64,000 bases of DNA from Hydrogenophilales bacterium 16-64-46 (GCA_002281775.1 NCGY01000002.1:62001-126000), one strand, 5' to 3'. Shown: positions 1 to 15,973, numbered from the stretch's first letter. A program made the numbers and translations. Notes: generated by a model not told the origin, from the sequence alone.

Positions 1-2279
1 GCCCCGCCACCTATTGGGGACTTGCCCAATGCGCCACGATCAAGCGCGATCCGGCGGCCGCCAGTCGCTGGCTAGAACAGGCACGCGCGTTACCCGACAA
101 GCAGGCAACCACCTGGATACGCACTGGCGACCTTGAACAATTCAAGGGGAACCAGGATCAAGCGATAGCCGCCTACTCCCGTGCACTCAAAATCGATCCG
201 ATCAATATTGAAGCCCTGCACGACCGCGCATTGCAATACCTTGCGCGCGGCAAAGTCGACGCCGCACGGGCCGACGCCGAAGCCCTGCGAAAAATCGCCC
301 CCACTTCGGTGGCCTCCGCCTATGTCGACGCCGTGCTTCAATTCCAGGACAACAAACCTGCGGAGGCGCGTGAAACCCTCCAGCGCCTACTCAAAATCGC
401 ACCAGACTACCGGCCGGCGATCCAGTTGAGTGGTTCGGTGGAGGCAGCGCTCGGCAACCTGCAAACCGCCGAAGTGAATTTCGCGCGGGTTGCACGCGCC
501 GAACCCTGGAACCTCCATGCCCGGCGCATGCTCGCCCGGACTCTGCTGGGCCAGGGTCGCGCCGAAGATGCCCAACGCTCGCTCGAAGGGCTCAAATTCG
601 AGAACCTCCGCGACCCGGAAATATTCAGCGTTGCGGGTGACGTTGCCTTTGCCCGGCGTGAATTCGCCCAGGCCGCCGCTTACTTCGAACGCGCCGTCGA
701 ACTCGCGCCGAATAATCCAGCCATGCTCGCCGACCTGGGTATCGCCCGCATGGCTTTGGGCAAGAGCGAAGGAGTCATCGATCTCGAAGCCGCAGCCGCG
801 ATGGATCGCAAAAGTGATCGCATCGACAACCTGCTCATCCTCAACCAGTTACGGCAGAAAAAATACAACGACGCCCTCGCCAGCATCGCCGAACTGGAGA
901 AAAAGAACGCCAATAATCCGCTTGCCTGGCATTTTCGCGGGATCGCGCAGCTCGGCCTGAAACAACTTCCCGCAGCCCGCCTGAGCTTTGAAAAGGCACT
1001 CTCACTGGACGCCGGATTTTTTCCCGCCGCCAGCAGTCTGGCCACTCTGGATATCGAACAAGGCAAACCGGACGCCGCCCGCCAGCGTTTTCTCGCCCTG
1101 CTCGCCAAGAAAAAGGATCATGTGCAGTCGATGCTGGCCCTGGCCGAACTTGCCGACCGTGCCGGGCGACTCGACGAACAGGCCGACTGGCTGAACAAAG
1201 CTATGCAAGCCAATCCCAAGAACCTCGCACCCGCCGCACAACTCGTACGTATCCATCTATCCAGGAAACAGCCTCGCGCTGCCCTGGAAGTCGCCGAAGC
1301 GACACTCAGAGCCAACCCCGATGCCGAACAGGCCTTCGCGCTACTCGGAGCCACCCAGTTGAGCACGGGCGACCACCGTGCTGCTGTGGGCACATTCAAC
1401 CAGCTGGTCGCCAAGGCACCAAAATCCGCGTCTGCTCAGGTGCAGCTCGCGCTCGCGCTGATCGCCGAGAAACAATCGGCCTCCGCACGCGACGCATTGA
1501 AAAAAGCCCTGCTCCTCCAGCCCGGCCATCTCGGCGCACTTGATGCCCTGCTGAAGCTCGAAATGGCAGATAAACGCGTCGATGACGCCCTCGGCGTCGC
1601 CCGCCAGATGCAGACCCTTCACCCCCGGCAGGCGCTGGGTTTCCAGCGTGAAGGCGACATCGAATTGAGCCGCCGTGACTATGCTGCGGCCACGCGCGCC
1701 TATCAGTCTGCCCTCGACCGGGGGGCGGGTGGGGCCGGTGCCATCCGGCTTCACCGCGCACAGATGCTGGGCGGCCAGCCCGCTGCTGCCGACGAACGCC
1801 TGGCCAGCTGGTTGAGCAATCACCCGGACGACGCCACCGCGCGAACCTATTTTGCCGAACGGCAGGTGAGCGCCGGCCGCACGCGCGACGCCATCACGCT
1901 CTACGAAACCGTCATACGACTTGCCCCAGACAACGCAATCGCCCGCAACAACCTCGCCGGCCTCTACCAGAAAACCGGCGACCCGCGCGCACTGGCCACT
2001 GCGGAGCAGGCGCTCGCCCGTGCTCCCTCGCATCCCGGCATACTCGACACCCTGGGCTGGATACTCGTCGAGCGTGGTCAAGTTGCGCGCGCCCTACCCT
2101 TGCTCGCCCAGGCCGCCACGGCAGCCCCCCGCGTCGCCGCCATCCGTTACCACCACGGCGTTGCCCTCGCCCGTGCCGGCAAGAATGACGCTGCCCGGCG
2201 AGAAATCCAGGCGGCACTGGCCGCCGACCCCACTTTCGCAGAGGCCAATGCTGCCCGTACTCTGCTTAAAACCTTGTAA
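1..2279 (+). CDS. prsT: PEP-CTERM system TPR-repeat protein, 5' truncated
   Basis: The frame is open from base 3 to the TAA at 2277-2279, so the gene starts before the window and about 758 codons are visible. The whole product is tandem 34-residue TPR-like units rich in Ala and Leu, with repeated A-x-x-Y/F-x-x-A-L/V-x-x-x-P patterns. Large periplasmic or outer-membrane TPR proteins of this kind (PrsT) accompany XrtA exosortase and exopolysaccharide genes and are thought to scaffold export or secretion. A PEP-CTERM cargo gene follows, which supports the assignment. The N-terminus (signal or lipobox) is not visible, so PrsT is a family-level inference; a generic TPR protein is the alternative. 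Confidence 0.8.
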   Translation, partial: PATYWGLAQCATIKRDPAAASRWLEQARALPDKQATTWIRTGDLEQFKGNQDQAIAAYSRALKIDPINIEALHDRALQYLARGKVDAARADAEALRKIAPTSVASAYVDAVLQFQDNKPAEARETLQRLLKIAPDYRPAIQLSGSVEAALGNLQTAEVNFARVARAEPWNLHARRMLARTLLGQGRAEDAQRSLEGLKFENLRDPEIFSVAGDVAFARREFAQAAAYFERAVELAPNNPAMLADLGIARMALGKSEGVIDLEAAAAMDRKSDRIDNLLILNQLRQKKYNDALASIAELEKKNANNPLAWHFRGIAQLGLKQLPAARLSFEKALSLDAGFFPAASSLATLDIEQGKPDAARQRFLALLAKKKDHVQSMLALAELADRAGRLDEQADWLNKAMQANPKNLAPAAQLVRIHLSRKQPRAALEVAEATLRANPDAEQAFALLGATQLSTGDHRAAVGTFNQLVAKAPKSASAQVQLALALIAEKQSASARDALKKALLLQPGHLGALDALLKLEMADKRVDDALGVARQMQTLHPRQALGFQREGDIELSRRDYAAATRAYQSALDRGAGGAGAIRLHRAQMLGGQPAAADERLASWLSNHPDDATARTYFAERQVSAGRTRDAITLYETVIRLAPDNAIARNNLAGLYQKTGDPRALATAEQALARAPSHPGILDTLGWILVERGQVARALPLLAQAATAAPRVAAIRYHHGVALARAGKNDAARREIQAALAADPTFAEANAARTLLKTL

Positions 2280-2880: not shown

Positions 2881-2896
2881 TGGCACACCCATTGCT
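2881..2896 (+). promoter_or_regulatory. sigma-54 (-24/-12) promoter of the PEP-CTERM gene
   Basis: TGGCAC-N5-TTGCT matches the RpoN consensus fully, with the GG and GC dinucleotides ten bases apart. Expected transcription start is near 2906, giving a leader of about 80 nt before the ATG at 2988. PEP-CTERM cargo genes in bacteria with PrsK/PrsR are often RpoN-dependent, which agrees with this site. Confidence 0.75.
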
Positions 2897-2987
2897 TTAA
2901 CACAGACGTGACTTGGAGGCCAGCTTGCAAAGCCAAAACCCCAAGCCAGACAAGCTGACATTCTCAATAACTTCAGGAGTTCGCATC

Positions 2988-3821
2988 ATGGCTCAAAAAC
3001 TCAAGACCTTCGCGCTGGCCGCCTTGGCCGGTGCCGCGATGGCAATCAGCGCTTCCGCCAGCGCAATCACCCTTACCAACAGCGCAGGGTCGTTTGCCAA
3101 CTGGGGCGGCTTTGACTGGGCGGAAAACGGTTCGGCTGTTGTCGACGGTTTTGACGCTACCGTCCTCGAAGGTGGCTCTGACACCTTCGATCTGACCTAT
3201 TTCGCCGATGCGGTCTCGATCAGCGCGGCAGGCGGTGGGTCGATAGTGGGTGCTACGGTCGGCTTGTTGCTGGGTGATTATGAATACACCATCGTTGCTA
3301 AGCTGAATGAAACCAGCACCTGCACAGCCGATAACGGTTTTTTCTGTACAACCGCCGAATTCGAATTGAACTCCGGTAGCTTCGAAATCTACTACGATGT
3401 CGCTGACAACGCAGATCTGGTTGCCGGCACCGGCCTCGACGACGGCATTCTGCTGATCGCGGGGACCCTCGTGGTTGGCGGCAGTGGGGGATTTGACATC
3501 CTCACCGGTGGCAACTCCGTGCTGAATGCCGTAATCACCTTCACAAACAGCAGCTTCATCAGCCCTGACCTGATCAATTCGGTCGCAGCCACCACGCTGC
3601 AGATTGGTGACAACACCACCAACTGGACGCCGCCCACGGGCATCCCTGACGGCGGCGGTACTGCAGTCGGGATTCCCGCAGATTCTCCTGCTCTCCTCCT
3701 ACAGGCCGACGGCAACCAGACCTTCACCGCAACCAGCGTGCCCGAGCCGGGCGTGCTCGCCCTCCTGGGTGTGGCCATGCTGGGCATGGCGGCGACCCGC
3801 CGTCGCAAGAGCGTGAAATAA
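2988..3821 (+). CDS. PEP-CTERM sorting-domain exported protein
   Basis: A 277-residue exported protein. Residues 1-26 are a Sec signal peptide (Lys-rich start, Ala-rich core, ASASA cleavage region). The C-terminus has the PEP-CTERM signal: VPEPG, a hydrophobic helix, then an Arg/Lys cluster (RRRK). This is recognised by exosortase XrtA, which cleaves and sorts the protein to the envelope or exopolysaccharide matrix. The middle is acidic, Gly/Thr/Asn-rich and low in Lys, as expected for a surface protein, and I recognise no domain in it. I chose the ATG at 2988 because AGGAG lies at 2975-2979 and the signal peptide starts there; the frame opens further upstream without features. Confidence 0.9.
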   Translation: MAQKLKTFALAALAGAAMAISASASAITLTNSAGSFANWGGFDWAENGSAVVDGFDATVLEGGSDTFDLTYFADAVSISAAGGGSIVGATVGLLLGDYEYTIVAKLNETSTCTADNGFFCTTAEFELNSGSFEIYYDVADNADLVAGTGLDDGILLIAGTLVVGGSGGFDILTGGNSVLNAVITFTNSSFISPDLINSVAATTLQIGDNTTNWTPPTGIPDGGGTAVGIPADSPALLLQADGNQTFTATSVPEPGVLALLGVAMLGMAATRRRKSVK

Positions 3822-3903: not shown

Positions 3904-4560
3904 TCAGCGAAGGCGTCTGGCCGGCACGCCGCCCCAGATTTCGCCCGCGCCAATGTGGGTGTCCTTGAGCACCAGCGCCCCAGCCGACACGATGGCGTCA
4001 TCGTCGATCGTGACGCCCGACATCACCACTGCCGTGGCACCGATGGTGACGTTGTTGCCGATGCGGATGCGCGCAAGGGCAAAGCGCCGGCCCTCGATGG
4101 CATGACTGAACAGCACGGCGTCGTGCCCCACGATGCAGTTGTCACCCAGTTCCGTCAGCGGCGGGTCTAGCAACACACCTGCACTGTAGGTGTTGCTGCC
4201 CAGCCGGGCACCCAGCGCCAGGTAAATCAGCCGCATCAGCGGGACAGGCAGGAAATGGGTACGAATCAGGCTGTTGAACAACAACAGATAGAAGAGGATG
4301 TTGACTTGCGCCGCGAACTCGGCACGCGAGCCTTCAACCAGCTCACCTTCCTGGAGTGGAAACGCACGCAAAAAAAGCCGATAGACGACAAACGCCCAGA
4401 GATAGACCAGGACCACTGCAGCAAACAGTAAAACCATGCCCCGGAAATCCCCCAGCGGCAAGCGTCCCAGCCCCCACCAGGTCGAGCCCAGCCCAAGCGT
4501 CAGGATCAGCCCGAGCATGACCATGAAAGTGAATATTTGCGGAACGGTTATGGCACGCAT
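3904..4560 (-). CDS. membrane-anchored hexapeptide-repeat acyltransferase
   Basis: A 218-residue protein. The N-terminal third has two strongly hydrophobic segments (about residues 5-27 and 37-60). The C-terminal half is a left-handed beta-helix acyltransferase with [LIV]-G-x-x-x-x repeats such as IRIGNNVTIGATAVV and VTIDDDAIVSAGALV, ending WGGVPARRL as in CysE/WbbJ-type O-acetyltransferases. Such enzymes O-acylate sugars of polysaccharides or lipids. The start ATG at 4560 overlaps the end of the glycosyltransferase by 13 nt, indicating translational coupling. Likely role: decoration of a glycan or glycolipid made with its neighbour. The acceptor is unknown. Confidence 0.75.
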   Translation of the reverse strand: MRAITVPQIFTFMVMLGLILTLGLGSTWWGLGRLPLGDFRGMVLLFAAVVLVYLWAFVVYRLFLRAFPLQEGELVEGSRAEFAAQVNILFYLLLFNSLIRTHFLPVPLMRLIYLALGARLGSNTYSAGVLLDPPLTELGDNCIVGHDAVLFSHAIEGRRFALARIRIGNNVTIGATAVVMSGVTIDDDAIVSAGALVLKDTHIGAGEIWGGVPARRLR

Positions 4561-5801
4561 GAAGAACTCGCCGATGGACTTGAAGATGGGCTGGACAAGA
4601 TGTCTGCGACAAAGGCGCGAAAATTCTCGCCAGGGTCGAAATCGCGTATGCGCTTGCCCACCGTTTGGGCTGCCTGCCGATAATGTGGTTCTTCGAGCAG
4701 GTGTTGCACGGCTTCGCGCAGGGCCGTGGCGTTGACGCGCGCGCCCCGCAGAGTCAGTCCGGCTCCCAGACGTTCGATCGCCTGCATGTTGAGCAATTGA
4801 TCCATGTTGAAACACACCCCCAGTACGGGCGTGCCGGCGGCCAGCGCTTCGCAGCTTGTGAGGCTGCCGCCATTGCAGATCAGCAGGTGGACTCGACTCA
4901 TCGCCAGCCCGAGCGGGAGGTAGTCGGCGATAAAAACATTCCGCTGGCTCTGATCCACGCCTTGCTTGCCGGCAACAACTGCGATGACGGTCAGCGGCAG
5001 CTGGGCCAGTGCGGCGACGATGCCAGGCAGGGCCACCCCGTGTCCGGAACTACCCAGGGTCACCAGTACCACGGGTTTATCCTCCGGCAAGCTGGCCCAC
5101 CATTCCGGCAGACACGCACCCGCAGACCAGCGGGGCACACCGATGAACCGGTGATTGGCGGGCAACCTGGACTGGGGTACCCAGTCGGGCAGGTCGGTGA
5201 AAAGCGTATGGTTGCTCCAGCTATAGACTGTGCGTAGGTCTGCGCCAAGTGACGGCAGGCCATGTCGCTTGCGGACACGATTCAGGGGGCGGGCATGACG
5301 GGCAAACGCCAAAGGGCGCACCCGGTCGAACAGCCACTGCGAAAAGCGCAGCCCCAGAAAGCGGGTGAAGGGCAGATCGGGCACGGGATAGTCGACTTTG
5401 GCGCAGGGGCTCCAGTAGGCATTGACCAGGGCCGCATAAGGCACGCGCCGCAGGGGCGCACTCACCGCCAGGGAGAGTCTGAAATCACCCACGACAAGGT
5501 CGGGTTCGACACGCGCGAGCAAATCGAGATCCTCGCTGACATAGGCTTCGAGCGCGGCACTGTCGTAGAGGGGTTTGCCCGCTTCCAGCGCGCGCGCAAA
5601 TGCCTCGCCGGGGATCGACTGGATCGGGTGGTAACGCAGTCCATCCATATCGGCAAGGGACAGGTATCGCGGGTCGGACGCGACCACGACTTCATAGCGT
5701 GAGGAATCGAGCGTGCGCGCCAGAGCAACGATGCGCGCAAAATGCGCGAGGGTGACGGCCTCAGCAACCAGCAAAACGACCGGTCTTTTTCGTACCTGCA
5801 T
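4548..5801 (-). CDS. UGT/MGT-type (GT1) glycosyltransferase
   Basis: A 417-residue GT-B glycosyltransferase. The C-terminal half carries the GT1 nucleotide-sugar signature as CNGGSLTSCEALAAGTP, preceded by VTLGSSGHG, the loop that begins the second Rossmann domain. Family members move a sugar from a UDP-sugar to lipids or small hydrophobic acceptors. The ATG at 5801 has AGAGAG about 6 nt upstream; another in-frame ATG at 5819 has a poorer site. It forms an operon with the acyltransferase downstream. Acceptor unknown; a glycolipid or secreted natural product is as likely as a polysaccharide. Confidence 0.75.
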   Translation of the reverse strand: MQVRKRPVVLLVAEAVTLAHFARIVALARTLDSSRYEVVVASDPRYLSLADMDGLRYHPIQSIPGEAFARALEAGKPLYDSAALEAYVSEDLDLLARVEPDLVVGDFRLSLAVSAPLRRVPYAALVNAYWSPCAKVDYPVPDLPFTRFLGLRFSQWLFDRVRPLAFARHARPLNRVRKRHGLPSLGADLRTVYSWSNHTLFTDLPDWVPQSRLPANHRFIGVPRWSAGACLPEWWASLPEDKPVVLVTLGSSGHGVALPGIVAALAQLPLTVIAVVAGKQGVDQSQRNVFIADYLPLGLAMSRVHLLICNGGSLTSCEALAAGTPVLGVCFNMDQLLNMQAIERLGAGLTLRGARVNATALREAVQHLLEEPHYRQAAQTVGKRIRDFDPGENFRAFVADILSSPSSSPSASSSCVP

Positions 5802-5911
5802 TACACTCTCTCTAATCATTGTTCAAGTCCCGCAAAGTGACTCCATGCATCCTCAGGTTCGACATCCCGGAATGCAGGATATCGAATGCGGCAATTTCGC
5901 GCCGTAACTGA

Positions 5912-7144
5912 ATGCCTGATATGGCCAATTTGCAGCTCGCTCTACGCAATCTCGTGCGTAACCGCAAACGCGGCATGATCGCCTTGTTGACGGTTGGCAT
6001 GGCTGTGGTTGCCATGACTTTGGCTGATGGCTTTGTGCAGTGGGTATTCTGGGCCATGCGCGAGGGGACAATCCAGTCCCAGTCCGGACACATCCAGGTC
6101 GTGCGTCCAGGTTATTTCCAGGCTGGCGCAGCCGACCCACACGCATTTTTGCTCCCCGTGACCGACGCTGTCCGGCAAACCCTGGAAAAAACCCCCGGTG
6201 TGAAGCTTGTGGCCCCTCGCCTTCTGGCCACCGGGCTCATCAGCCGCGAGGGAACCACGGTTTCTTTCATTGCTGAGGGCGTCGATCCCGCCAAAGAGCA
6301 CGATCTCAGCAAGGCGATCAACTTGGTGAAAGGACGTGATCTGTCGAATGGCACAGCCAATGAGGTCATCCTGGGTAACGGGCTTGCCCGCAGCCTGCAT
6401 GCCAGCCCGGGCGACACAGTCGCCCTGCTGTCAAATACCGCGAGCGGTGGCATCAATGCCGTTGAAGCAAAAGTGGCCGGTATTTTCGTGAGCACCAGCC
6501 AGGCTTACGACGACGCGGCGCTGCGGCTGCCGATCACCTTGGCCCAGTCCCTTATCCGTGTGGAAGGTGCGCACATGTGGCTGGTGTTGTTGCAGGATAC
6601 CGCGCAAACCGACGACCGTCTGGCAGAGTTCCGCACACGCTTCCCGCCCGCTGCTCACCAGCTGGAGTTCGTACCGTGGTACCAGCGCGCCGATTTCTAC
6701 AACAAAACCGTCGCGCTTTTCTCCGAACAAATCCATGTGCTACGGATCATCATTGCAGCCATTATCGTGCTCAGCATTTCCAATATTCTGGTCATGAACG
6801 TGCTGGAGCGCACTGGCGAAATCGGCACCTTGCTGGCTGTTGGCATCAAGCGCAGGCAGGTGCTGGTGCTGTTCGCACTCGAAGGCATACTGCTGGGTGG
6901 GGTCGGCGGCATAGGCGGGGCGGGCATCGGCTTCGGTCTGGCCGAGATCATCTCTGCCATCGGCATTCCCATGCCGCCACCACCGGGCATGGAAAAAGGA
7001 TTCACCGCTCGCATCAATGCCGACTGGACAGTCCTGCTTCAGGCGTTCGCCATTGCGTTCCTGACCACATCCGTGGCCAGCATTTACCCAGCCTGGAAAG
7101 CTTCCCGGCTGGATATCGTCAACGCCTTGCGACATAACATTTAG
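5912..7144 (+). CDS. ABC transporter permease, FtsX/MacB family (first of pair)
   Basis: A 410-residue inner-membrane protein with the FtsX/LolC/MacB layout: TM1 near residues 20-40 after a basic N-terminus (RNLVRNRKRG), a long periplasmic MacB-type domain, then three C-terminal TM segments. The cytoplasmic stretch ERTGEIGTLLAVGIKRRQVL is the coupling region of this family. These permeases act with a LolD/MacB-type ATPase to extract or move lipoproteins, lipids or hydrophobic molecules. The second permease starts 4 nt downstream. Either ATG 5912 or 5921 could be the start; neither has a clear ribosome site. Confidence 0.85.
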   Translation: MPDMANLQLALRNLVRNRKRGMIALLTVGMAVVAMTLADGFVQWVFWAMREGTIQSQSGHIQVVRPGYFQAGAADPHAFLLPVTDAVRQTLEKTPGVKLVAPRLLATGLISREGTTVSFIAEGVDPAKEHDLSKAINLVKGRDLSNGTANEVILGNGLARSLHASPGDTVALLSNTASGGINAVEAKVAGIFVSTSQAYDDAALRLPITLAQSLIRVEGAHMWLVLLQDTAQTDDRLAEFRTRFPPAAHQLEFVPWYQRADFYNKTVALFSEQIHVLRIIIAAIIVLSISNILVMNVLERTGEIGTLLAVGIKRRQVLVLFALEGILLGGVGGIGGAGIGFGLAEIISAIGIPMPPPPGMEKGFTARINADWTVLLQAFAIAFLTTSVASIYPAWKASRLDIVNALRHNI

Positions 7145-7148
7145 GCCC

Positions 7149-8360
7149 ATGTTCAGGCTCGCTGTCCGCAACATCTTCCGCAACCGTTTGCGTACCGCGC
7201 TAACGCTGGCGGCCATCATGTGTGGCGTGGCCGCCGTGATCCTGAGCGGCGGTTTTGTCGAGGATGTATTTGTGCAACTGCGCGAATCCACCATCCATTC
7301 GCGCCTGGGCCATGCACAGGTGATGCGCCAGGGATATCGCGAATTCGGCCAGCGCGAACCGACTCGGTACATGATCGAATCCGCCGAACCGGTGCTCAAG
7401 GTCGCCCGTAGCCTGCCGCAGATACGCGAGGTAATGACACGAGTGAATTTTTCCGGCCTGGCCAACAACGGTCGTGCCGATTTGCCGATCATCGGCGAAG
7501 GCGTGGAACCCGGCAAGGAGGGGCGCCTCGGAAGCGCCATCGATTTCATCGCGGGACGCAACCTCACGGATGGTGACGCGTTCGGGGTTGTTGTCGGTGA
7601 GGGTGTCGCTGCTGCATTGAAGCTCAAACCCGGCAACCCACTGAATCTTGCCGTCAGTACGCCGGACGGCGCACTGAACACGCTGGAGTTCACCGTCACC
7701 GGGATATTCCGCAGCTTCTCGAAGGAGTACGATGACCGCGCGGTTCGCATCTCGCAAGCGGCTGCACAGGAGTTGCTGTACACAGCGGCCGTACACAGCG
7801 TAATCATTGCGCTCACAGACACGGCCCATACCGATGCGGTCGTGACAGAATTGCGTGCCCGTCTCGGTCAACAGGGCTTCGAGGTGAAACCCTGGTATGA
7901 ACTGGCCGATTTCTACAACAAGACCGTAGCACTCTATAAACGCCAGTTCGGTGCATTGCAGTTCATCATACTGATGATGCTGGTCCTGAGCGTGACAAGC
8001 ACGATCAACATGGTGATTTACGAGCGTACAGGCGAATTCGGCACGCTTCTGGCGCTGGGCATGAAACGCCGTCGCATATTCCGACTGGTACTGCTGGAAA
8101 ACGCCCTGCTTGGCATAGTGGGGGCCGCGCTCGGCGTACTTGCAGGGCTGGCACTGGCGCTGGGAATCTCCGCCATGGGACTCGACATGCCGCCGCCGCC
8201 CGGGTCCAGCGTGGGCTATACGGCCAGCATCCGCATCGTGCCCTGGGTGCTGGCGGTTGCCGCCGCCACCGGCGCAATGTCGGCGGTGCTGGCGTCGGTC
8301 TTACCGGGCCGGCGGGCCGCCCGGCTTGGCATCGTAGAAGCCCTTCGCCACAATATCTGA
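7149..8360 (+). CDS. ABC transporter permease, FtsX/MacB family (second of pair)
   Basis: A 403-residue paralogue of the preceding gene with the same plan: RNIFRNRLRTALTL then TM1, a periplasmic domain, three C-terminal TM segments, the coupling motif YERTGEFGTLLALGMKRRRI, and a matching C-terminus (IVEALRHNI versus IVNALRHNI). It begins 4 nt after the first permease, so the two are co-translated and probably form a heterodimer like LolC/LolE. The ATPase is not directly downstream but lies at 9301 after an opposite-strand gene. Confidence 0.85.
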   Translation: MFRLAVRNIFRNRLRTALTLAAIMCGVAAVILSGGFVEDVFVQLRESTIHSRLGHAQVMRQGYREFGQREPTRYMIESAEPVLKVARSLPQIREVMTRVNFSGLANNGRADLPIIGEGVEPGKEGRLGSAIDFIAGRNLTDGDAFGVVVGEGVAAALKLKPGNPLNLAVSTPDGALNTLEFTVTGIFRSFSKEYDDRAVRISQAAAQELLYTAAVHSVIIALTDTAHTDAVVTELRARLGQQGFEVKPWYELADFYNKTVALYKRQFGALQFIILMMLVLSVTSTINMVIYERTGEFGTLLALGMKRRRIFRLVLLENALLGIVGAALGVLAGLALALGISAMGLDMPPPPGSSVGYTASIRIVPWVLAVAAATGAMSAVLASVLPGRRAARLGIVEALRHNI

Positions 8361-8385: not shown

Positions 8386-9189
8386 TCAACGGCTCAGGCG
8401 CTTGAGATAGTCCTTGGTGAAAAGACGGTCGGGCAAGTCCCGCGGCATCATGTCGCTGTATGCCAGTTCGGAGCGATACCCTGGGCGCAAGGCATCCTCG
8501 ACCACCATGCGGGTTGGCCGGATGCGACCGCCGAGTTCCTCGAAATCCCGATAGGTAGCGGTTTTCAGCAAGCGACCGGACACAGCGTGAAATTCAGCCT
8601 TGTACGGTCGCGCAGTGCGCGCGTTGACCCAGTAGTTGACGCTACGGTAAGTCACCCAGCGGTCGAGTGCATCAAGTCGCAGCACAGTATGCTCTTCGCC
8701 GGACACGATTTCCTCGCGCAGGATGCTCGGTACGTAGTCTCCGGCGAAGTTGGCACGCGCCAGGTCGCCATTGGCGACCTGGCCTGTCAGTCGTTGTGCA
8801 AGAGGCAGACGAATGGGCTGTGACAAATTAGGCAGGAACGCCCAAAGCTCGCGATCTCGCATCAGCAGGATCTGGCCGCGCTCGACAGCTGGCGCGGTGG
8901 TTTGCACCAGCGTGCGGGTATTACCACGCGACAGGATGCGATAGGCACGCTCCTCGGGCTCTGCCTCTGGTGCGAAGGTGGTGATGACAACATCGACCTG
9001 GAACGGCTCGTCAGGGAAACGGATACGGTCGGCACGCAGCAGAAGATCGCGTGCCCGGGAATCATCGGTTCGCGCAAGAAGCGGGCTCGACGCGAACGCG
9101 AGTGCGCCGCACACCCATGCAACAAAGTGGCGACGCGACAGATGAGGCAAACCTGCCATGGACACGGTGCTACTGAGGGGTTGACGCAT
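8386..9189 (-). CDS. outer membrane lipoprotein-sorting (LolA-like) protein
   Basis: A 267-residue exported protein with an RRHF twin-Arg-like N-region and a hydrophobic stretch ending at LLARTDD. The rest resembles the LolA/LolB-like family COG2834: many beta strands, motifs such as LLMRDRELWAFLPNLSQPIR, and a C-terminal TKDYLKRL. These proteins have a half-barrel that binds acyl chains in the periplasm. It converges with the permeases and diverges from the FHA-ABC gene, so it is transcribed separately although it almost certainly belongs to the same system. The start at 9189 is uncertain; an ATG at 9159 would also retain the signal sequence. Confidence 0.75.
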   Translation of the reverse strand: MRQPLSSTVSMAGLPHLSRRHFVAWVCGALAFASSPLLARTDDSRARDLLLRADRIRFPDEPFQVDVVITTFAPEAEPEERAYRILSRGNTRTLVQTTAPAVERGQILLMRDRELWAFLPNLSQPIRLPLAQRLTGQVANGDLARANFAGDYVPSILREEIVSGEEHTVLRLDALDRWVTYRSVNYWVNARTARPYKAEFHAVSGRLLKTATYRDFEELGGRIRPTRMVVEDALRPGYRSELAYSDMMPRDLPDRLFTKDYLKRLSR

Positions 9190-9300
9190 GTGGGTGCATT
9201 TCAGAGAACCTTGGTCTTGGCATTATCGGCTAATATGCGGGCTAATTCAGTTGTTCCATTCTCCATAGCTGCCAGACGAATCCGGATTGAAGCGCCCACC

Positions 9301-10284
9301 ATGGCCAGACTCCTGATCACGCAAGACCAGCAATCCCCGCGCGCGGTTCGCCTGTACAAACCACGTATCAAGATCGGTCGGGCATCGGTATGTGAGGTGC
9401 AGTTGAATTTTCCGGGTGTCAGTCGCAGACATGCAGTGATTACCCGGGAGGGCGAGGCTTTTTATATCGAAGACCTGGATAGCGCCCAAGGCGTGCGGCT
9501 GAACGGCCAAAAGATTCAGCGCGCCCTGTTACAGCACGGCGACCATATCGTTATCGATCAATCGCATCTGGAGTTCGATGCCGAACTCGATGTGACCGAT
9601 GCGGCCGGGGTGACGGTGGTGCAAGCCGATACCGTCAGCAAGACCTACGCACTGGGCAACCAAACTGTTCAGGCACTGAATGGTGTGTCGGTGGAAATTG
9701 CACGGGGCGAATTCATGGCACTGGCCGGCCCATCGGGGAGCGGGAAATCGACGCTTCTGAACCTGATCGGCTGCCTCGACACGCCCAGCGCAGGCCGTAT
9801 CATGATTGAAGGCCAGGATATCGCCGGAAAAACCGCCGACGAACTGGCCGATCTGCGACTGAATACACTTGGGTTCGTGTTCCAGACTTTCAATCTTCTG
9901 CCCGTACTCACGGCCCTGGAAAACATCGAATACCCGTTATTGCAAAAATCCGGCGTGGACAAAACCGAACGCCAGAAGCGCATCGCGCACTACCTCAGGG
10001 TGGTCGGACTCGAACGCTACGCCCACCACAAGCCCAGCGAATTGTCCGGAGGACAGCGCCAGCGGGTGGCCATCGCACGCGCACTGGCAACGCAACCCCG
10101 CATCGTGCTCGCAGATGAACCCACGGCCAATCTGGACCATAAAACCGGTGAGGATATTCTCCGCCTGATGAAGCAACTCAACCATGCCGAGGGTACAACC
10201 TTCGTTTTCTCTACGCACGATGCGCGTGTCATGGAAATGGCTGATCGCGTCGTCGAACTGTCCGACGGTCGGATTGCAGAATGA
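9301..10284 (+). CDS. ABC transporter ATPase with N-terminal FHA domain
   Basis: A 327-residue fusion. Residues about 1-95 form a forkhead-associated domain (IGRASVCEVQLNFPGVSRRH near 25-44 and LDSAQGVRLNGQKI near 59-72), a phosphothreonine-binding module. Residues 108-327 are a MacB/LolD-type ATPase: Walker A GPSGSGKST at 143-151, LSGGQ at 248-252, Walker B RIVLADEP at 267-274. It should energise the two FtsX permeases at 5912-8360. The ATG at 9301 was chosen because the FHA domain starts there; the longer open frame upstream is antisense to the LolA-like gene. The FHA domain suggests control by Ser/Thr phosphorylation, but no kinase is seen in the window. Confidence 0.9.
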   Translation: MARLLITQDQQSPRAVRLYKPRIKIGRASVCEVQLNFPGVSRRHAVITREGEAFYIEDLDSAQGVRLNGQKIQRALLQHGDHIVIDQSHLEFDAELDVTDAAGVTVVQADTVSKTYALGNQTVQALNGVSVEIARGEFMALAGPSGSGKSTLLNLIGCLDTPSAGRIMIEGQDIAGKTADELADLRLNTLGFVFQTFNLLPVLTALENIEYPLLQKSGVDKTERQKRIAHYLRVVGLERYAHHKPSELSGGQRQRVAIARALATQPRIVLADEPTANLDHKTGEDILRLMKQLNHAEGTTFVFSTHDARVMEMADRVVELSDGRIAE

Positions 10285-11849
10285 CACCCATGTCCCAAAC
10301 ACCCCGCACACAATTCTTTCATCCTGTTGCCCGCCGGTTCTTCCCTGCTCCGGTTCTACTGATTGCTTTGGCGACGGCATTACCTGCCACCGCGTTTTGC
10401 CAGCAATCATTCGACGATTTGTTCGGCGGCCCCCCCAAGCCAAAAACGGCCAAGCCCAAACCGACCAAGCCCGCGCCTGTTGAAGCCCAGCCTGTCGCGC
10501 CCCCACCCGGGGAAACGCCTGCGCCGCTGATCGAGTCCGCCCCTGCACAGGCCCTGCCTGAGAGCCTGCCCGTGACAGCCCCCCCCCCTGCCATCGTGCC
10601 TGCGGCCCCGGCAAGCCTAGGAAGCGACGGGTCACCTCCGGCTCCCGACACCGCCAGGTTCACTGGTTTTTACCAGAACGATCTGGCCTATACATTCGCA
10701 GGCGACAAGCACTGGTCACGCTTCAGCAATACCTTTGATCTTGCTGCGCAAGGCAATCTCGGCAGCGCGGCATGGAAACTTGGCGGACGCCTTGTGGCCG
10801 ACCCGATATACGACCTGACCAGCCATTACCCCCGCGCGGTGCGCGATGATCAGCGCTTCGAGGCTACGATACGCGAGGCCTATCTCGATTTCACAGCTGC
10901 CGATCTCGAATTCCGCCTGGGGCGCCAACATATCGTGTGGGGTGAGATGGTCGGCCTGTTTTTTGCTGACGTGGTCTCGGCCAGGGACTTACGGCAATTC
11001 GTGCTGCCCGATTTCGACATGATCCGGCTGCCCCAATGGGCGGCCCGGGCAGAGTATTTCTCGGGAGATTTCCACGCAGAAGCCGTGTGGATTCCATTTA
11101 TGACCTACGACGACATAGGCAAGCCCGGTGCCGAGTTCTACCCCTTTGTGCCGTCTCCGGTGACAGGGTTCGACACAGTCATCGCCAAGGAAAGCCGGCC
11201 TTCGGGCCCCGACGACGCAGCCTATGGCCTGCGGCTCTCATGGCTACGGAATGGCTGGGATCTCTCTGGTTTCTACTACACCACCCTGGATCCGGCGGCG
11301 GCCTTTTCCCGGCGAGTGGACCTCAGCATCATTACCTATCAGCCATCGCATTCCCGTATCCGTCAGGTTGGCGGTACCCTGGCCAAGGACCTGGGCTTCA
11401 CATTGCTCAAGGCTGAGGCGGTCTATACCCTCGACAAACGCTACACCACGCTTGACCCTCTCGATGCCGATGGCCTGGTCAGGCAAAACGCGCTGGACTA
11501 TGTGGTGGGGCTGGAATGGAGCTTCCCGCAAGAGACGCGGTTCAACATTCAGGCCTACCAGCGACGTTTTTCCGACTACGATGCCGGCATCGTCCCCGAG
11601 CGGATCGAAAGCGGAATGAGCCTGCTACTCGCAACACGCGTTCTCCACCCCAAACTCGAAACCGAGCTATTGTGGATCAACAGCCTCAACCGCACTGACT
11701 GGCTGGGACAACTCAAAATGACCTGGCTATATGACGACCACTGGCGTCTAGCCGCCGGCGTGGATGTTTTCGAAGGCCCTGCGGATGGCCTGTTTGGCCA
11801 ATACGACAAACGCGACCGGGCTTACACAGAAATCCGGTACACCTTTTAG
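10281..11849 (+). CDS. outer-membrane beta-barrel protein (DUF1302/porin-like) with Pro-rich linker
   Basis: A 522-residue protein whose ATG overlaps the ATPase stop codon (ATGA), so it is coupled to the ABC system. Residues 1-40 are a signal peptide and residues about 50-120 a Pro/Ala/Lys-rich linker. From about 130 onward alternating amphipathic strands end in a terminal Phe (EIRYTF), the outer-membrane barrel signature. LGRQHIVWGEM is typical of DUF1302-like barrels. It could be the outer-membrane exit or acceptor for the substrate of the ABC system. The family call is from pattern only. Confidence 0.7.
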   Translation: MTPMSQTPRTQFFHPVARRFFPAPVLLIALATALPATAFCQQSFDDLFGGPPKPKTAKPKPTKPAPVEAQPVAPPPGETPAPLIESAPAQALPESLPVTAPPPAIVPAAPASLGSDGSPPAPDTARFTGFYQNDLAYTFAGDKHWSRFSNTFDLAAQGNLGSAAWKLGGRLVADPIYDLTSHYPRAVRDDQRFEATIREAYLDFTAADLEFRLGRQHIVWGEMVGLFFADVVSARDLRQFVLPDFDMIRLPQWAARAEYFSGDFHAEAVWIPFMTYDDIGKPGAEFYPFVPSPVTGFDTVIAKESRPSGPDDAAYGLRLSWLRNGWDLSGFYYTTLDPAAAFSRRVDLSIITYQPSHSRIRQVGGTLAKDLGFTLLKAEAVYTLDKRYTTLDPLDADGLVRQNALDYVVGLEWSFPQETRFNIQAYQRRFSDYDAGIVPERIESGMSLLLATRVLHPKLETELLWINSLNRTDWLGQLKMTWLYDDHWRLAAGVDVFEGPADGLFGQYDKRDRAYTEIRYTF

Positions 11850-11899
11850 CCGCGCCCCAACAAGCACTGAACCCGGCCGGCATCATGCACAGGGCCGGA

Positions 11900-12979
11900 T
11901 CAAGTTCCAGTTTTGATCAGCCGTTCGGCGTCCAGACGCAAAGAGCGGCTGGACGCGGCCACGCCGTATCCCAAGCGGCCGAGAAATACTGTGTGGCCAG
12001 CCGCCCCGGCCGGGAGACGGCTTCGTAGGCGGGTAGCCAGGTTAGCCGCGTAGGCAACCAGCTCAGGGCGCGTCGTAAATGCTCGTCCCTGCCGCAGATA
12101 ACGGTCGAAGATCAAGGGGGTCTGCTCAGGCTGTAGCTGAAGGCCCAAACGCGTTGCAGTGAGCCAAAACCGCTGAAGGGCTCGCCCGGCAGCCACATAG
12201 TCGTCGACACTCCTGGCCGGACGCGACGCGACCAGACCAAAGTGGGCCGCACACATCAGGCCGGGCAGCCAATCCATCTCCAGCCTCGGCACGAGGTGAC
12301 CGGCAAGATAGGTGTTGAAAAAGCGAACCCGGTTCCAGCTCCCCATCACCCAACGCATCAACTTGAGCGTACCAGGATCGAGCCCCAGCGCCTGATCGGG
12401 CACTTTGTCTGAACTGAAACGGGCGTTCCAGTCGATGATGTCGCGGTGAACAGGATAGGCTTCGGGCAGGGTTAAACGCAGCTTGGCGTTGGCAAACATG
12501 AGCGCGGCCATGCGGCGTTTTTCTGCTCCCTCGAACCAGATTACTTTGTAGTGCGGTGCCACGGCGTCATGCAGCGTCTGCCGATGCGCATCCTCCAGTT
12601 TGCGGGTGGAAAGCGGGCGGCGTTGAACAGAGCGCAGACGAATATACTCGTAAAGTGAATCGACGTTTCCGCCCACACCATCTTCGAGCACGACCCGATA
12701 CACCGGATGGGTGTCAGTCGAACCGGGCTCACGCGTGATGTCAGCACGCGCGCCTTGTGCTGTGGCAGCTATCGCCAGTGTCTCGATCAGCGCACCATGG
12801 GCAAGGTGGCTGGAATGTCCATCGAGATCATAGACGCAGTGATCCCGGGTATCTGCTCCGTGGACGCGAAGGTGATGCGCATCCACGATCTCGATATGCC
12901 AGGGCTGGGTATTGTCACCAGAAGGTGCCCAGCGGGCATCGTCAATGATCCGTATGAGAGAATCGGGCGGAGCAGCCAT
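11900..12979 (-). CDS. nitroreductase-family flavoprotein (oxazolone synthetase oxidase-like)
   Basis: A 359-residue nitroreductase-fold protein, longer than the roughly 200 residues of a simple nitroreductase. The N-terminus has the FMN-binding signature ARWAPSGDNTQPWHIEI near residues 15-31. The C-terminal half holds AGRALQRFWLTATRLGLQLQ, the usual second FMN/dimer region. It is the third gene of a tight operon: its ATG overlaps the TAA of the ThiF gene (TAATG). In heterocycle-forming systems this fold oxidises azolines or similar rings. With a ThiF-like and an N-acyl amino acid synthase-like partner, an oxidase role in oxazolone formation is the best hypothesis; another flavin reductase function remains possible. 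Confidence 0.75.
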   Translation of the reverse strand: MAAPPDSLIRIIDDARWAPSGDNTQPWHIEIVDAHHLRVHGADTRDHCVYDLDGHSSHLAHGALIETLAIAATAQGARADITREPGSTDTHPVYRVVLEDGVGGNVDSLYEYIRLRSVQRRPLSTRKLEDAHRQTLHDAVAPHYKVIWFEGAEKRRMAALMFANAKLRLTLPEAYPVHRDIIDWNARFSSDKVPDQALGLDPGTLKLMRWVMGSWNRVRFFNTYLAGHLVPRLEMDWLPGLMCAAHFGLVASRPARSVDDYVAAGRALQRFWLTATRLGLQLQPEQTPLIFDRYLRQGRAFTTRPELVAYAANLATRLRSRLPAGAAGHTVFLGRLGYGVAASSRSLRLDAERLIKTGT

Positions 12980-13914
12980 TACAACCCCAGCTTGCGTCGC
13001 ACGAGAGCGATCATGAGTCGTTGTAATGGATTTCGATTGCCACCTGGACGCCAGGTTTTAGCAAGACGGAGTCGATAGGCATCGAAATGATAACCATGAG
13101 GTGCTGCACGAACGGGGCCCCGGTTCAACAAGATTTTCAGGGTTTCGGTTGCGGCCACTCCAGCACAGAGTTGGCATGCCATGATGGTCGAAGGCCCGCG
13201 GCGACTAGCCATATCTACAGCTGATGGGTCGGCGAGATACTGCATTTGCAGACCTGCCGGGGCCAAACCGATAACAAACCTTATCGGCCACTCAGCCTCC
13301 GGGCCGTCAGAAAAGCGAAAGTAATCCTCAAAACTCATACTCCCGGGCAGGAAATTGAGCACTGCCGCGCCCATGCCCAAGGGCGCGGCGGTGACGGCAG
13401 GAATCCCCTTGTCGCGACAGGCGGCAAACACGGCACGACGTATGTCAAAGGCAAAAAAATCCAGCCCGTCAACAAATATATCCACCCCCGCCAGAAACGC
13501 ATCAAGATTCTCAGGGGAGACACCTTGCGGAAAGCCCGTAATCTCGACTTCGGGATTGATGTCCCGCGCCTGAGCCATCATCACACCCAGCTTGGCACAA
13601 CCCAGTGTGCTCGTAGTCGCTCCCGCCTGACGGTTGAAATTCGCCAGTTCGAAGGTATCAAAATCCGCCAGATGAAAGCGGGATACACCCAGACGACACA
13701 AGGTGAGCAAATGGACGCCACCTACCCCGCCCATGCCCGCAATCGCCACGCGCCTGCCACGCAGGCTTGCCTGCTCCTCACGAGTCAGCCAACCGATGTT
13801 GCGGGAAAAAGCCTCCTGATAATCGAAGGGTAGGGATTGAGCTGCCTCTGCCATGCTCGGGACTGCACTACGATCAATTGCCACGAAGCAATCGCTGCGT
13901 AATACCCAACTCAT
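12979..13914 (-). CDS. ThiF/E1-like adenylating protein
   Basis: A 311-residue member of the ThiF/MoeB/E1 superfamily. GMGGVG at 60-65 is the nucleotide loop, followed by DFDTFELANFNRQ (84-96) with the Asp and Asn-x-x-Arg-Gln residues that contact ATP. Only one CxxC pair (CQLC near 251) is visible, so the structural zinc site of MoeB may be incomplete. E1-like proteins adenylate carboxylates, here perhaps of an N-acyl amino acid. Its start overlaps the upstream acyltransferase by 41 nt; an in-frame ATG at 13854 would remove the overlap and begin just before the conserved region. No ThiS or MoaD partner is nearby, which argues against cofactor synthesis. Confidence 0.85.
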   Translation of the reverse strand: MSWVLRSDCFVAIDRSAVPSMAEAAQSLPFDYQEAFSRNIGWLTREEQASLRGRRVAIAGMGGVGGVHLLTLCRLGVSRFHLADFDTFELANFNRQAGATTSTLGCAKLGVMMAQARDINPEVEITGFPQGVSPENLDAFLAGVDIFVDGLDFFAFDIRRAVFAACRDKGIPAVTAAPLGMGAAVLNFLPGSMSFEDYFRFSDGPEAEWPIRFVIGLAPAGLQMQYLADPSAVDMASRRGPSTIMACQLCAGVAATETLKILLNRGPVRAAPHGYHFDAYRLRLAKTWRPGGNRNPLQRLMIALVRRKLGL

Positions 13915-14671
13915 CCTCGCGGGAGAAAAAATAGGGATAGATCGATTTCACCCCAGGCACTGAAGATCCAGTTCCGCCAAACCGCAGTATCTGGCTGTCC
14001 GCATAAGCCAGGTCGAGCCTGAGCAGCACAGCAGGCGCGTTGACGCGCGGGCAGACCTTTTCCCCGCCGAACGCTGCGAATCCGAGCATCTTCTCGTAAA
14101 ACAGGACGTGACGGGGGTTAACCTCGATCAGGAAGTCGGTGGCCTGATGAATGTTGTGGCCATAGATGTACGACAGGTGAAACAACGCAGCCAGAACGCT
14201 CTTGGAACGGATGTCCTGGTCTACAGCGAGTCGCGTGATGTCGCACGGTACGCGTCCTGCTGCACGCAGGCTGTCCGCCTCGGCCTTATAGAGCTGATCC
14301 ACGATCATCCCGTCTGGCGTATCCAGACCCAAGGTGAGGGTGCCTACCACCTTGTCCTCCTGGTAGGCGACAAGCGTGATCTTGTACTGGTCGCGCTCCG
14401 ACACGGAGGCCTCGTAGCCACGCCAGTGATACATTTTTTCGACCAGTAGGCTGGCGGATCTGCGACGATCTTCATTGGTCGCAAGCCGGATCTTGTATTG
14501 TTCGCGCCCCACCTGCGTACCCATCACCAGATCAGTCGAGGCCGCGCTCTGATCCAGGCACAAATCCTTCAGGCGATAGGGCGACTGGAACGAGACCAGA
14601 GTGCGATCCCACTCGTCCGGTTCAGTCTGGCGCTTTTTTGCGCCCAGCAGAAATTTGCTGAGGTCAGTCAT
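13874..14671 (-). CDS. FeeM-like N-acyl amino acid synthase / GNAT-type acyltransferase
   Basis: A 265-residue protein of the autoinducer-synthase/GNAT fold. Visible features are the helix RRSASLLVEKMYHWRGYE near residues 50-67, the core strand VVGTLTLGLD, CDITRLAVDQ, and the GNAT-like EVNPRHVLFYEKMLGF. These fit FeeM-type synthases, which join an acyl-ACP acyl chain to an amino acid, or the related PEP-CTERM/exosortase-associated acyltransferases. It is the first gene of the three-gene minus-strand operon, and AGGA lies just before the ATG. Made with the ThiF and nitroreductase partners, its product is likely an N-acyl amino acid to be cyclised. Amino acid specificity cannot be read from the sequence. 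Confidence 0.75.
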   Translation of the reverse strand: MTDLSKFLLGAKKRQTEPDEWDRTLVSFQSPYRLKDLCLDQSAASTDLVMGTQVGREQYKIRLATNEDRRRSASLLVEKMYHWRGYEASVSERDQYKITLVAYQEDKVVGTLTLGLDTPDGMIVDQLYKAEADSLRAAGRVPCDITRLAVDQDIRSKSVLAALFHLSYIYGHNIHQATDFLIEVNPRHVLFYEKMLGFAAFGGEKVCPRVNAPAVLLRLDLAYADSQILRFGGTGSSVPGVKSIYPYFFSREDELGITQRLLRGN

Positions 14672-14723
14672 GTTCCTGGGTTAAGAATTTGGCAGGCCGA
14701 GTCTGCTCATGTTTCGTGACAGT

Positions 14724-14738
14724 CATAGGGACCCTATG
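14724..14738. promoter_or_regulatory. palindrome upstream of the acyltransferase-ThiF-nitroreductase operon
   Basis: CATAGGG-A-CCCTATG is a perfect 7+1+7 inverted repeat located 53 bp upstream of the acyltransferase ATG. It lacks a T tail and sits where an operator or activator box would be. No regulator gene is adjacent. Confidence 0.4.
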
Positions 14739-14790
14739 GAGTTTATCGGCATCCTTACCACACGACTTGACCGTTAGCGCGCAAATCAAT

Positions 14791-15834
<1,044 letters not shown>

Positions 15835-15840
15835 CTATTT

Positions 15841-15966
15841 TTCCGGTCTCACGCTCCATGATGCAGACGATGTTGCATCGTCTCCCGCTTCTCCTCCCTG
15901 AGCGGGATGCCTTAATCCCCTTAAGGCACTTTCAGCCCCGACTCCTCCCTTGGTCGGGGCTTTTTT
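15841..15966 (+). ncRNA. candidate small RNA with two anti-Shine-Dalgarno loops
   Basis: Between hemB and engB, both on the minus strand, the plus strand folds into four consecutive hairpins: stems 15865-15872/15876-15883, 15884-15889/15901-15906, 15908-15915/15921-15928 and 15934-15942/15953-15961. The last is followed by six T, a complete intrinsic terminator for which no plus-strand gene exists. The loops of hairpins 2 and 4 are TCTCCTCCCTG and TCCTCCCTTG, complementary to Shine-Dalgarno sequences. This matches the plan of anti-SD small RNAs of Proteobacteria and perhaps the Betaproteobacteria toxic small RNA family. The 5' end is a guess; no clear promoter was found. Confidence 0.65.
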
Positions 15967-15973
15967 ATTCCGG

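What the first reader, a model, noticed from the sequence alone, without database searches (positions are those of the whole stretch)
11900..14671. Three-gene operon resembling a split oxazolone synthetase locus
An N-acyl amino acid synthase-like gene, a ThiF/E1-like gene and an enlarged nitroreductase-like gene form a tight operon with 41-nt and 1-nt overlaps. There is no ThiS/MoaD, YcaO or precursor peptide gene. Established knowledge, from memory: a ThiF-nitroreductase di-domain enzyme with an N-acyltransferase partner makes acyl-amino-acid-derived oxazolones. Here the two domains are separate proteins, which would be a discrete version of that system in a sulfur-oxidising autotroph. The product could be a lipid-like signal or envelope compound. 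The ABC exporter locus ends only 51 bp away on the other strand and may handle it.
Basis: partly seen in the sequence, partly recalled or inferred. Interest (0 to 1): 0.85.

Follow-up and report, generated by a model that had tools for sequence, protein, structure and literature searches.

The report
Split acyl-oxazolone gene trio in Thiobacillus
Three adjacent genes in a sulfur-oxidising Thiobacillus look like a known kind of enzyme set that turns fatty acids and amino acids into unusual ring-shaped lipids; across many bacteria this set sits beside genes for surface-protein sorting, slime and a lipid-type exporter, which hints at a role in building the cell's outer matrix.

Summary
[quoted passage not shown] Only the claimed 41-nt overlap is doubtful, because it depends on the start codon. 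The ThiF protein groups with ThiF domains fused to FDO and apart from MoeB/ThiF/TcdA. The FDO matches Acg by profile and by fold. The trio or its fused form is conserved across Thiobacillus and many Pseudomonadota, so an acyl-oxazolone or dehydro-N-acyl amino acid pathway is the best reading. The more interesting result is context. The ThiF gene co-occurs with exosortase (18/19 versus 41/166 genomes). Its neighbourhoods are enriched for PEP-CTERM proteins, XrtA exopolysaccharide genes and a LolCDE-like exporter. In this genome the only two PrsT genes lie about 10 kb away. The link of NAS, and of one stieleriacine cluster, to PEP-CTERM is published; the survey linking cyclase, oxidase and exporter was not found in papers I could read. 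One caution: the essential NAS glutamate is aspartate here. No product has been shown.

The parts
13874..14671 (-). [quoted passage not shown] catalytic-Glu position is Asp144
   Evidence: PF21926 175 bits; predicted fold best matches FeeM 2g0b, E 1.3e-14; motif comparison
12979..13914 (-). ThiF-like adenylating cyclase, 311 aa as the longest ORF; probable true start at 13854 (291 aa)
   Evidence: NF006077 452 bits; tree; start codon comparison
11900..12979 (-). Flavin-dependent oxidase (FDO, Acg-type nitroreductase), 359 aa, predicted desaturase
   Evidence: Acg-family and Rv1355c-family models; profile match to 2YMV 5.6e-19; Foldseek top hit 2YMV 1.7e-12
10281..11849 (+). DUF1302 outer-membrane protein of the exporter locus, convergent, 50 bp from the FDO gene
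   Evidence: PF06980; recurs beside split and fused ThiF/FDO genes
9193..10284 (+). FHA-ABC ATPase, LolD-like (start approximate)
   Evidence: PF00498 and PF00005; TIGR02211 238 bits, below its cut-off
8386..9189 (-). LolA-like carrier (PF17131)
   Evidence: 147 bits; conserved in the linked exporter
7149..8360 (+). FtsX/MacB-type permease, LolC/E-like
5912..7144 (+). FtsX/MacB-type permease, LolC/E-like
4548..5819 (-). Small-molecule-type glycosyltransferase (EryCIII/MGT-like); homologue near the ThiF gene in 20 of 62 named loci
2913..3821 (+). PEP-CTERM protein of the flocculation-associated PepA family (start uncertain; searched from 2988)
   Evidence: NF033554 156 bits against a cut-off of 80
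1..2279 (+). PrsT (XrtA/PEP-CTERM TPR protein), second of a tandem pair; its 5' part lies left of the window
   Evidence: TIGR02917 at G000:C33:61541-64219, 756 bits; the only two over the cut-off in the genome

Best explanation
The three genes most likely encode a split acyl-oxazolone-type pathway. Step 1: the FeeM-type NAS joins an acyl chain (from acyl-ACP or acyl-CoA) to the amino group of an amino acid, probably an aromatic one. Step 2: the ThiF-like protein activates the carboxylate with ATP and closes the 5-membered oxazolone ring. Step 3: the Acg-type FMN oxidase introduces the alpha-beta double bond with O2. The last two may run in either order, and ring opening would leave a dehydro-N-acyl amino acid. 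The lipid, possibly glycosylated, is then probably moved to the envelope by the adjacent LolCDE-like ABC/LolA-like/DUF1302 exporter, in the service of the XrtA/PEP-CTERM/exopolysaccharide matrix system. Shown here: gene content, family membership, folds, conservation, gene linkage. Inferred: every chemical step, the substrate, the export and the matrix role (the chemistry is much surer than the export and matrix role).
For: Family models and folds for all three proteins. The tree puts MoeB/ThiF/TcdA and this genome's own paralogues on one side (97/92, 100% of 200 bootstrap trees) and the window ThiF with discrete and ThiF-FDO fused proteins on the other. The window FDO is 53-62% identical to many discrete and fused FDO domains. 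The trio is conserved in Thiobacillus and beyond. Characterised systems of the same make-up do these steps: OxzAB and TyzABC as described in PMC10404671, TrzAS in PMC12856293. Context: exosortase in 18/19 ThiF-positive genomes versus 41/166 others; TIGR03694 acyltransferase in 15/19 versus 10/166. Neighbourhood against 20 matched control loci: acyltransferase 38/62 versus 0/20, exporter 22/62 versus 0/20, XrtA exopolysaccharide genes 14/62 versus 0/20, PEP-CTERM proteins 20/62 versus 1/20. Literature: an exosortase-linked NAS mutant of Methylomonas LW13 loses its polysaccharide band (PMC11072679), PrsT is needed for flocs (PMC9850573), and the stieleriacine cluster lies among EPS and PEP-CTERM genes (PMC7293339).
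Against: No product is known from any Thiobacillus. The NAS carries Asp where FeeM has Glu95 and where Glu103 of Nas354 is essential (PMC4897644). No oxazolones were observed for stieleriacines, kyonggic or thalassotalic acids despite similar genes (PMC12479983), so the ThiF protein may not deliver a stable oxazolone. The OxzA/B and TyzA/B/C sequences themselves were not available for direct comparison. PrsT enrichment alone is weak against the control (20/62 versus 2/20, p 0.08), and the 62 loci are not independent (many Oxalobacteraceae). Some Thiobacillus genomes show NAS-ThiF without an FDO found nearby.
Confidence: 0.66

Rival explanations
1. The trio makes linear dehydro-N-acyl amino acids (thalassotalic/kyonggic/stieleriacine-like), with the ThiF protein only activating or transiently cyclising the substrate so that the FDO can desaturate it; the oxazolone is an intermediate, not the product.
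For: Producers of these acids carry the same three genes, and no oxazolone was reported from them (PMC12479983). Tryptazolones hydrolyse and are alcoholysed easily (PMC12856293). In TrzS cyclisation precedes desaturation.
Against: Tyrazolones and tryptazolones were detected in producers when extraction was gentle (PMC10404671, PMC12856293).
Confidence: 0.25
2. The ThiF protein is a cofactor or sulfur-carrier enzyme (MoeB/ThiF/TcdA) and the neighbours are incidental.
For: It shares the E1-type adenylation fold and about 35% identity over roughly 150 residues with those proteins.
Against: Separate clade in the tree; the genome has two other ThiF-family paralogues that group with MoeB/ThiF and TcdA; no cysteine is invariant in the family alignment; no ThiS/MoaD gene was seen nearby; NAS and FDO linkage is conserved.
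Confidence: 0.03
3. Gene linkage to exosortase/EPS and the exporter is hitch-hiking in a variable envelope-gene region, without functional coupling.
For: ThiF sequences of Thiobacillus fall into several clades, as expected of frequent transfer; the 62 loci are not phylogenetically independent.
Against: Genome-level co-occurrence in a class sample drawn mostly as one genome per family (18/19 versus 41/166), so not only adjacency; the exporter appears beside split and fused forms in several families; a fused protein beside XrtA and PEP-CTERM genes in Nitratidesulfovibrio and ABC genes beside ThiF in Bdellovibrio.
Confidence: 0.25
4. The NAS of this clade is inactive or altered in substrate because Glu is replaced by Asp.
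For: E103A abolishes Nas354 activity (PMC4897644); Asp in 7 of 52 NAS, Glu in 45.
Against: An acidic residue is kept and the Asp form is kept in proteins 52-73% identical to the window NAS from Thiobacillus, Sulfuriferula and Nitrotoga, next to intact ThiF and FDO genes.
Confidence: 0.12

Closest known systems
TyzA/TyzB/TyzC of Mycobacterium tuberculosis (PMC10404671)
   Same: Three separate proteins: acyltransferase, ThiF-like cyclase, single-domain FDO. The paper puts TyzC in FDO-A23, a subcluster with Betaproteobacteria and Hydrogenophilalia members.
   Different: TyzA is on the opposite strand; actinobacterial; no exosortase context described.
OxzA/OxzB of Pseudoalteromonas rubra (as described in PMC10404671)
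   Same: N-acyltransferase plus ThiF and nitroreductase domains; close relatives of the window proteins exist in fused form.
   Different: ThiF and FDO are fused in OxzB; separate here.
TrzA/TrzS of mycolic-acid bacteria (PMC12856293)
   Same: Same chemistry types; the window FDO hits the Rv1355c (TrzS) family model with 119 bits.
   Different: Fused; tryptophan-specific; short acyl chains.
Thalassotalic/kyonggic/stieleriacine clusters (PMC12479983, PMC7293339)
   Same: NAS, separate ThiF and separate nitroreductase genes in operon-like order; the Stieleria cluster is near PEP-CTERM and EPS genes.
   Different: Linear dehydrotyrosine products; no LolCDE-like exporter mentioned in the passages read.
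PEP-CTERM/exosortase-associated N-acyl amino acid synthases (Craig, Cherry and Brady 2011, cited in PMC11631085, PMC4897644 and PMC7293339; original not held)
   Same: NAS genetically linked to the exosortase system.
   Different: The NAS here is FeeM-type, not TIGR03694; I add linkage of the cyclase, oxidase and exporter.

Membership tests
[quoted passage not shown]
   PF21926 175 bits; Foldseek FeeM 2g0b first
Acyl-oxazolone pathway (OxzAB/TyzABC/TrzAS type) | ThiF-like protein or domain in the FDO-linked clade, not the MoeB/ThiF/TcdA clade | tested here: met
Acyl-oxazolone pathway (OxzAB/TyzABC/TrzAS type) | FDO (Acg-like, enlarged monomeric nitroreductase) | tested here: met
Acyl-oxazolone pathway (OxzAB/TyzABC/TrzAS type) | Direct sequence relation to characterised OxzB, TyzB or TyzC | not tested
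   Those sequences were not fetched; only NCBIfam models of related families were matched
Acyl-oxazolone pathway (OxzAB/TyzABC/TrzAS type) | Oxazolone product | not testable with these tools
   Needs expression and LC-MS
[quoted passage not shown]
   Asp144 instead; strict Glu not met, acidic group kept, effect on activity unknown
TIGR03694 exosortase-associated acyltransferase | Score above 111.95 bits | tested here: not met
   No match for the NAS at E<=1; none over the cut-off in the genome
MoeB/ThiF cofactor enzymes | Groups with MoeB/ThiF; sulfur-carrier partner gene nearby | tested here: not met
XrtA/PEP-CTERM system, context | Exosortase in the genome; PrsT and PEP-CTERM protein nearby | tested here: met
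   Three exosortase genes; tandem PrsT; PepA-type protein at 2913-3821

The most novel reading that the evidence does not exclude
The NAS-ThiF-FDO set, split or fused, is a standing lipid branch of the XrtA/PEP-CTERM/exopolysaccharide system. It makes an acyl-oxazolone that is glycosylated or exported by a dedicated LolCDE-like/LolA-like/DUF1302 relay and is needed for floc or biofilm matrix. That would give these lipids a physiological role and explain why exosortase genomes carry acyltransferases.
Probability: 0.3. Interest if true: 0.72.

Novelty: new member of a known kind. Interest (0 to 1): 0.42.

Why it matters
The physiological role of acyl-oxazolones is described as a major unresolved question (PMC12856293). 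Here the cyclase and oxidase, and not only the synthase, are tied by co-occurrence and by neighbourhood to the exosortase/exopolysaccharide system and to a recurring exporter. That makes the role directly testable in bacteria with floc or biofilm assays. It also suggests a function for NF006077 (PRK08223), still labelled 'hypothetical protein'. The gene set itself is of a published kind.

Tried and rejected
Cofactor-enzyme reading of the ThiF protein: rejected by the tree. TIGR03694 as the identity of the NAS: rejected. 'Discrete version is new': rejected by PMC10404671 and PMC12479983. Sigma-54 control of the trio: no site with 0 or 1 mismatch near its start; the one perfect site in the window (2881-2895) lies before the PEP-CTERM gene, and matches with up to 2 mismatches are no more frequent than in shuffled sequence. 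No sigma-70-like promoter was found in 11700-14900. Viral contigs hold no relative by this search. The plasmid search gave few distant relatives, of which the Nitratidesulfovibrio one was informative. A single origin of the Asp-type NAS was not supported: the Nitrotoga sequence falls apart from the others in a weakly supported tree. The 2011 NAS-exosortase paper and the 2021 OxzB paper were not held.

Full report
OBSERVATION. The three genes are present at the stated coordinates on the minus strand. The NAS matches Pfam FeeM with 175 bits. The ThiF protein scores 452 bits to NCBIfam NF006077/PRK08223 (cut-off 266; 'hypothetical protein'), 318 and 258 bits to the multidomain models PRK14851 and PRK14852, and at most 84 bits to MoeB/ThiF models. 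The third protein matches Nitroreductase weakly (39.5 bits) and the Rv1355c-family (119 bits) and Acg-family (117 bits) models better. The FDO gene overlaps the ThiF gene by 1 nt. The 41-nt ThiF/NAS overlap follows from the most upstream ATG; homologues start about 25-29 residues later, and Met21 would leave a 19-nt gap. The convergent DUF1302 gene ends 50 bp away.

ORGANISM. The window is G000:C33:62001-126000.

WHAT THE PROTEINS ARE. A maximum-likelihood tree of 49 ThiF sequences puts E. coli MoeB, ThiF and TcdA and this genome's two paralogues on one side of a supported branch (97/92; 100% of 200 bootstrap trees). The window protein lies on the other side, among discrete and ThiF-FDO-fused proteins that interleave, so fusion or fission happened repeatedly. 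Tree placement of some long branches is unsure, as the program warns. Gly-rich nucleotide-loop residues and Asp152, which I equate with the ATP-contacting Asp of ThiF/MoeB, are invariant in 16 family members (the equation rests on alignment and prior knowledge). The FDO family profile finds Acg (2YMV, 5.6e-19) as its best solved relative. The AlphaFold model (mean pLDDT 96.7) has 2YMV as its top Foldseek match (1.7e-12, TM 0.71/0.77; next best 6e-05). Acg is the single-active-site monomer of the FDO group (PMC10404671), which explains the 'enlarged' reductase. The NAS model (pLDDT 83.7) matches FeeM first (1.3e-14). At the catalytic position (Glu95 in FeeM; Glu103 in Nas354, where Ala abolishes the phenotype, PMC4897644) the window protein has Asp144. 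Seven of 52 NAS compared have Asp, 45 have Glu. The Asp forms are from the Thiobacillus/Sulfuriferula relatives closest to the window, plus Nitrotoga, which does not clearly group with them.

CONSERVATION. Of the 35 genus mates searched, 32 have a ThiF homologue at 46% identity or more. NAS is found in 51 of 56 Thiobacillus genomes. In most loci the order NAS-ThiF-FDO is kept; in some the FDO is divergent (about 28% identity) or not found within 1.5 kb. In a class-wide sample of 185 genomes, 19 have a ThiF over the NF006077 cut-off, in open frames of both about 300 aa and about 660 aa or more.

CONTEXT. The ThiF genes recur beside large PrsT-type TPR genes, TIGR03694 or FeeM-type acyltransferases, two LolC/E-like permeases, a LolD-like ATPase, a LolA-like protein and a DUF1302 protein. 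In 62 named loci of at least 12 kb, compared with 20 loci around MoeB/TcdA-type paralogues from trio-bearing relatives: acyltransferase 38 versus 0 (p 5e-7), exporter 22 versus 0 (p 0.001), glycosyltransferase 20 versus 0 (p 0.002), PEP-CTERM proteins 20 versus 1 (p 0.017), XrtA exopolysaccharide genes 14 versus 0 (p 0.017), PrsT 20 versus 2 (p 0.08). These p-values are indicative only, because several loci are from close relatives. The XrtA gene names were checked on representatives (TIGR03027, TIGR03007, TIGR03018, TIGR03016, TIGR02915). At genome level, exosortase over its cut-off occurs in 18 of 19 ThiF-positive and 41 of 166 other genomes (p 2e-9), and TIGR03694 in 15 of 19 and 10 of 166 (p 2e-12). 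This genome has three exosortase genes, no TIGR03694 over the cut-off and only two PrsT genes, in tandem about 10 kb from the trio, followed by a PepA-type PEP-CTERM gene. Nitratidesulfovibrio vulgaris plasmid pDVUL01 carries a 989-aa ThiF-FDO protein, by its length and the PRK14852 model probably a NAS-ThiF-FDO fusion, among an XrtA glycosyltransferase, a TPR gene and PEP-CTERM genes. A Bdellovibrio plasmid has ABC exporter genes beside a ThiF gene.

MECHANISM. From the characterised systems (PMC10404671, PMC12856293): acylation of an amino acid, ATP-dependent cyclisation, O2-dependent desaturation. Which amino acid and acyl chain are used here cannot be read from sequence; tyrosine or phenylalanine is the likeliest by precedent. 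Export by the neighbouring transporter and a matrix role are inferences from linkage. They are helped by phenotypes elsewhere: loss of a polysaccharide band in a Methylomonas mutant of an exosortase-linked NAS (PMC11072679), loss of flocs in a prsT mutant (PMC9850573), and the stieleriacine cluster among EPS and PEP-CTERM genes (PMC7293339).

NOVELTY. Separate ThiF and nitroreductase genes with an NAS are published (PMC10404671, PMC12479983). The tie between NAS and exosortase dates from 2011 (cited in PMC11631085, PMC4897644 and PMC7293339; original not held). I found no paper that connects oxazolones with exosortase: a term search of PMC12856293 finds none, and the only paper in the library that holds 'N-acyl', 'oxazolone' and 'exosortase' together uses them in unrelated passages. 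The 2021 OxzB paper could not be read. I therefore file the trio as a new member of a known kind. The survey-level link of cyclase, oxidase and exporter to the exosortase system is the part worth following.

Noticed in passing
window 2881-2895 (+): Perfect sigma-54 consensus TGGCAC-N5-TTGC just upstream of the PepA-type PEP-CTERM gene, as reported for pepA in Aquincola.
   Followed up: partly
window 15881-15968 (+): anti-hemB small RNA (RF02837), 73.9 bits, beside the hemB gene.
   Followed up: no
[quoted passage not shown]
   Followed up: partly
L063 (G049), L104, L175: Two NAS genes within one locus; in L063 the copy next to the ThiF gene is the Asp type and the second is the Glu type.
   Followed up: no
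L106, L104, L119, L160, L130, L139 and others: A second, very divergent FDO class (about 18-23% identity to the window FDO) beside the same kind of ThiF gene.
   Followed up: no
window 9193-10284 (+): The exporter ATPase carries an N-terminal FHA domain, suggesting phospho-dependent control of a LolD-like ATPase.
   Followed up: no
L182, 5062-8031 (+), plasmid pDVUL01 of Nitratidesulfovibrio vulgaris: ThiF-FDO protein of 989 aa, probably with an N-terminal NAS domain, among XrtA and PEP-CTERM genes.
   Followed up: partly
window 12979-13914 versus 13246-13833: A codon-usage gene caller preferred an opposite-strand ORF over the ThiF gene, hinting at atypical codon use or transfer.
   Followed up: no
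L112-L128 (mostly Oxalobacteraceae loci): ThiF-FDO pairs near a homologue of the window's MGT-like glycosyltransferase, many without an acyltransferase detected within about 7 kb.
   Followed up: no
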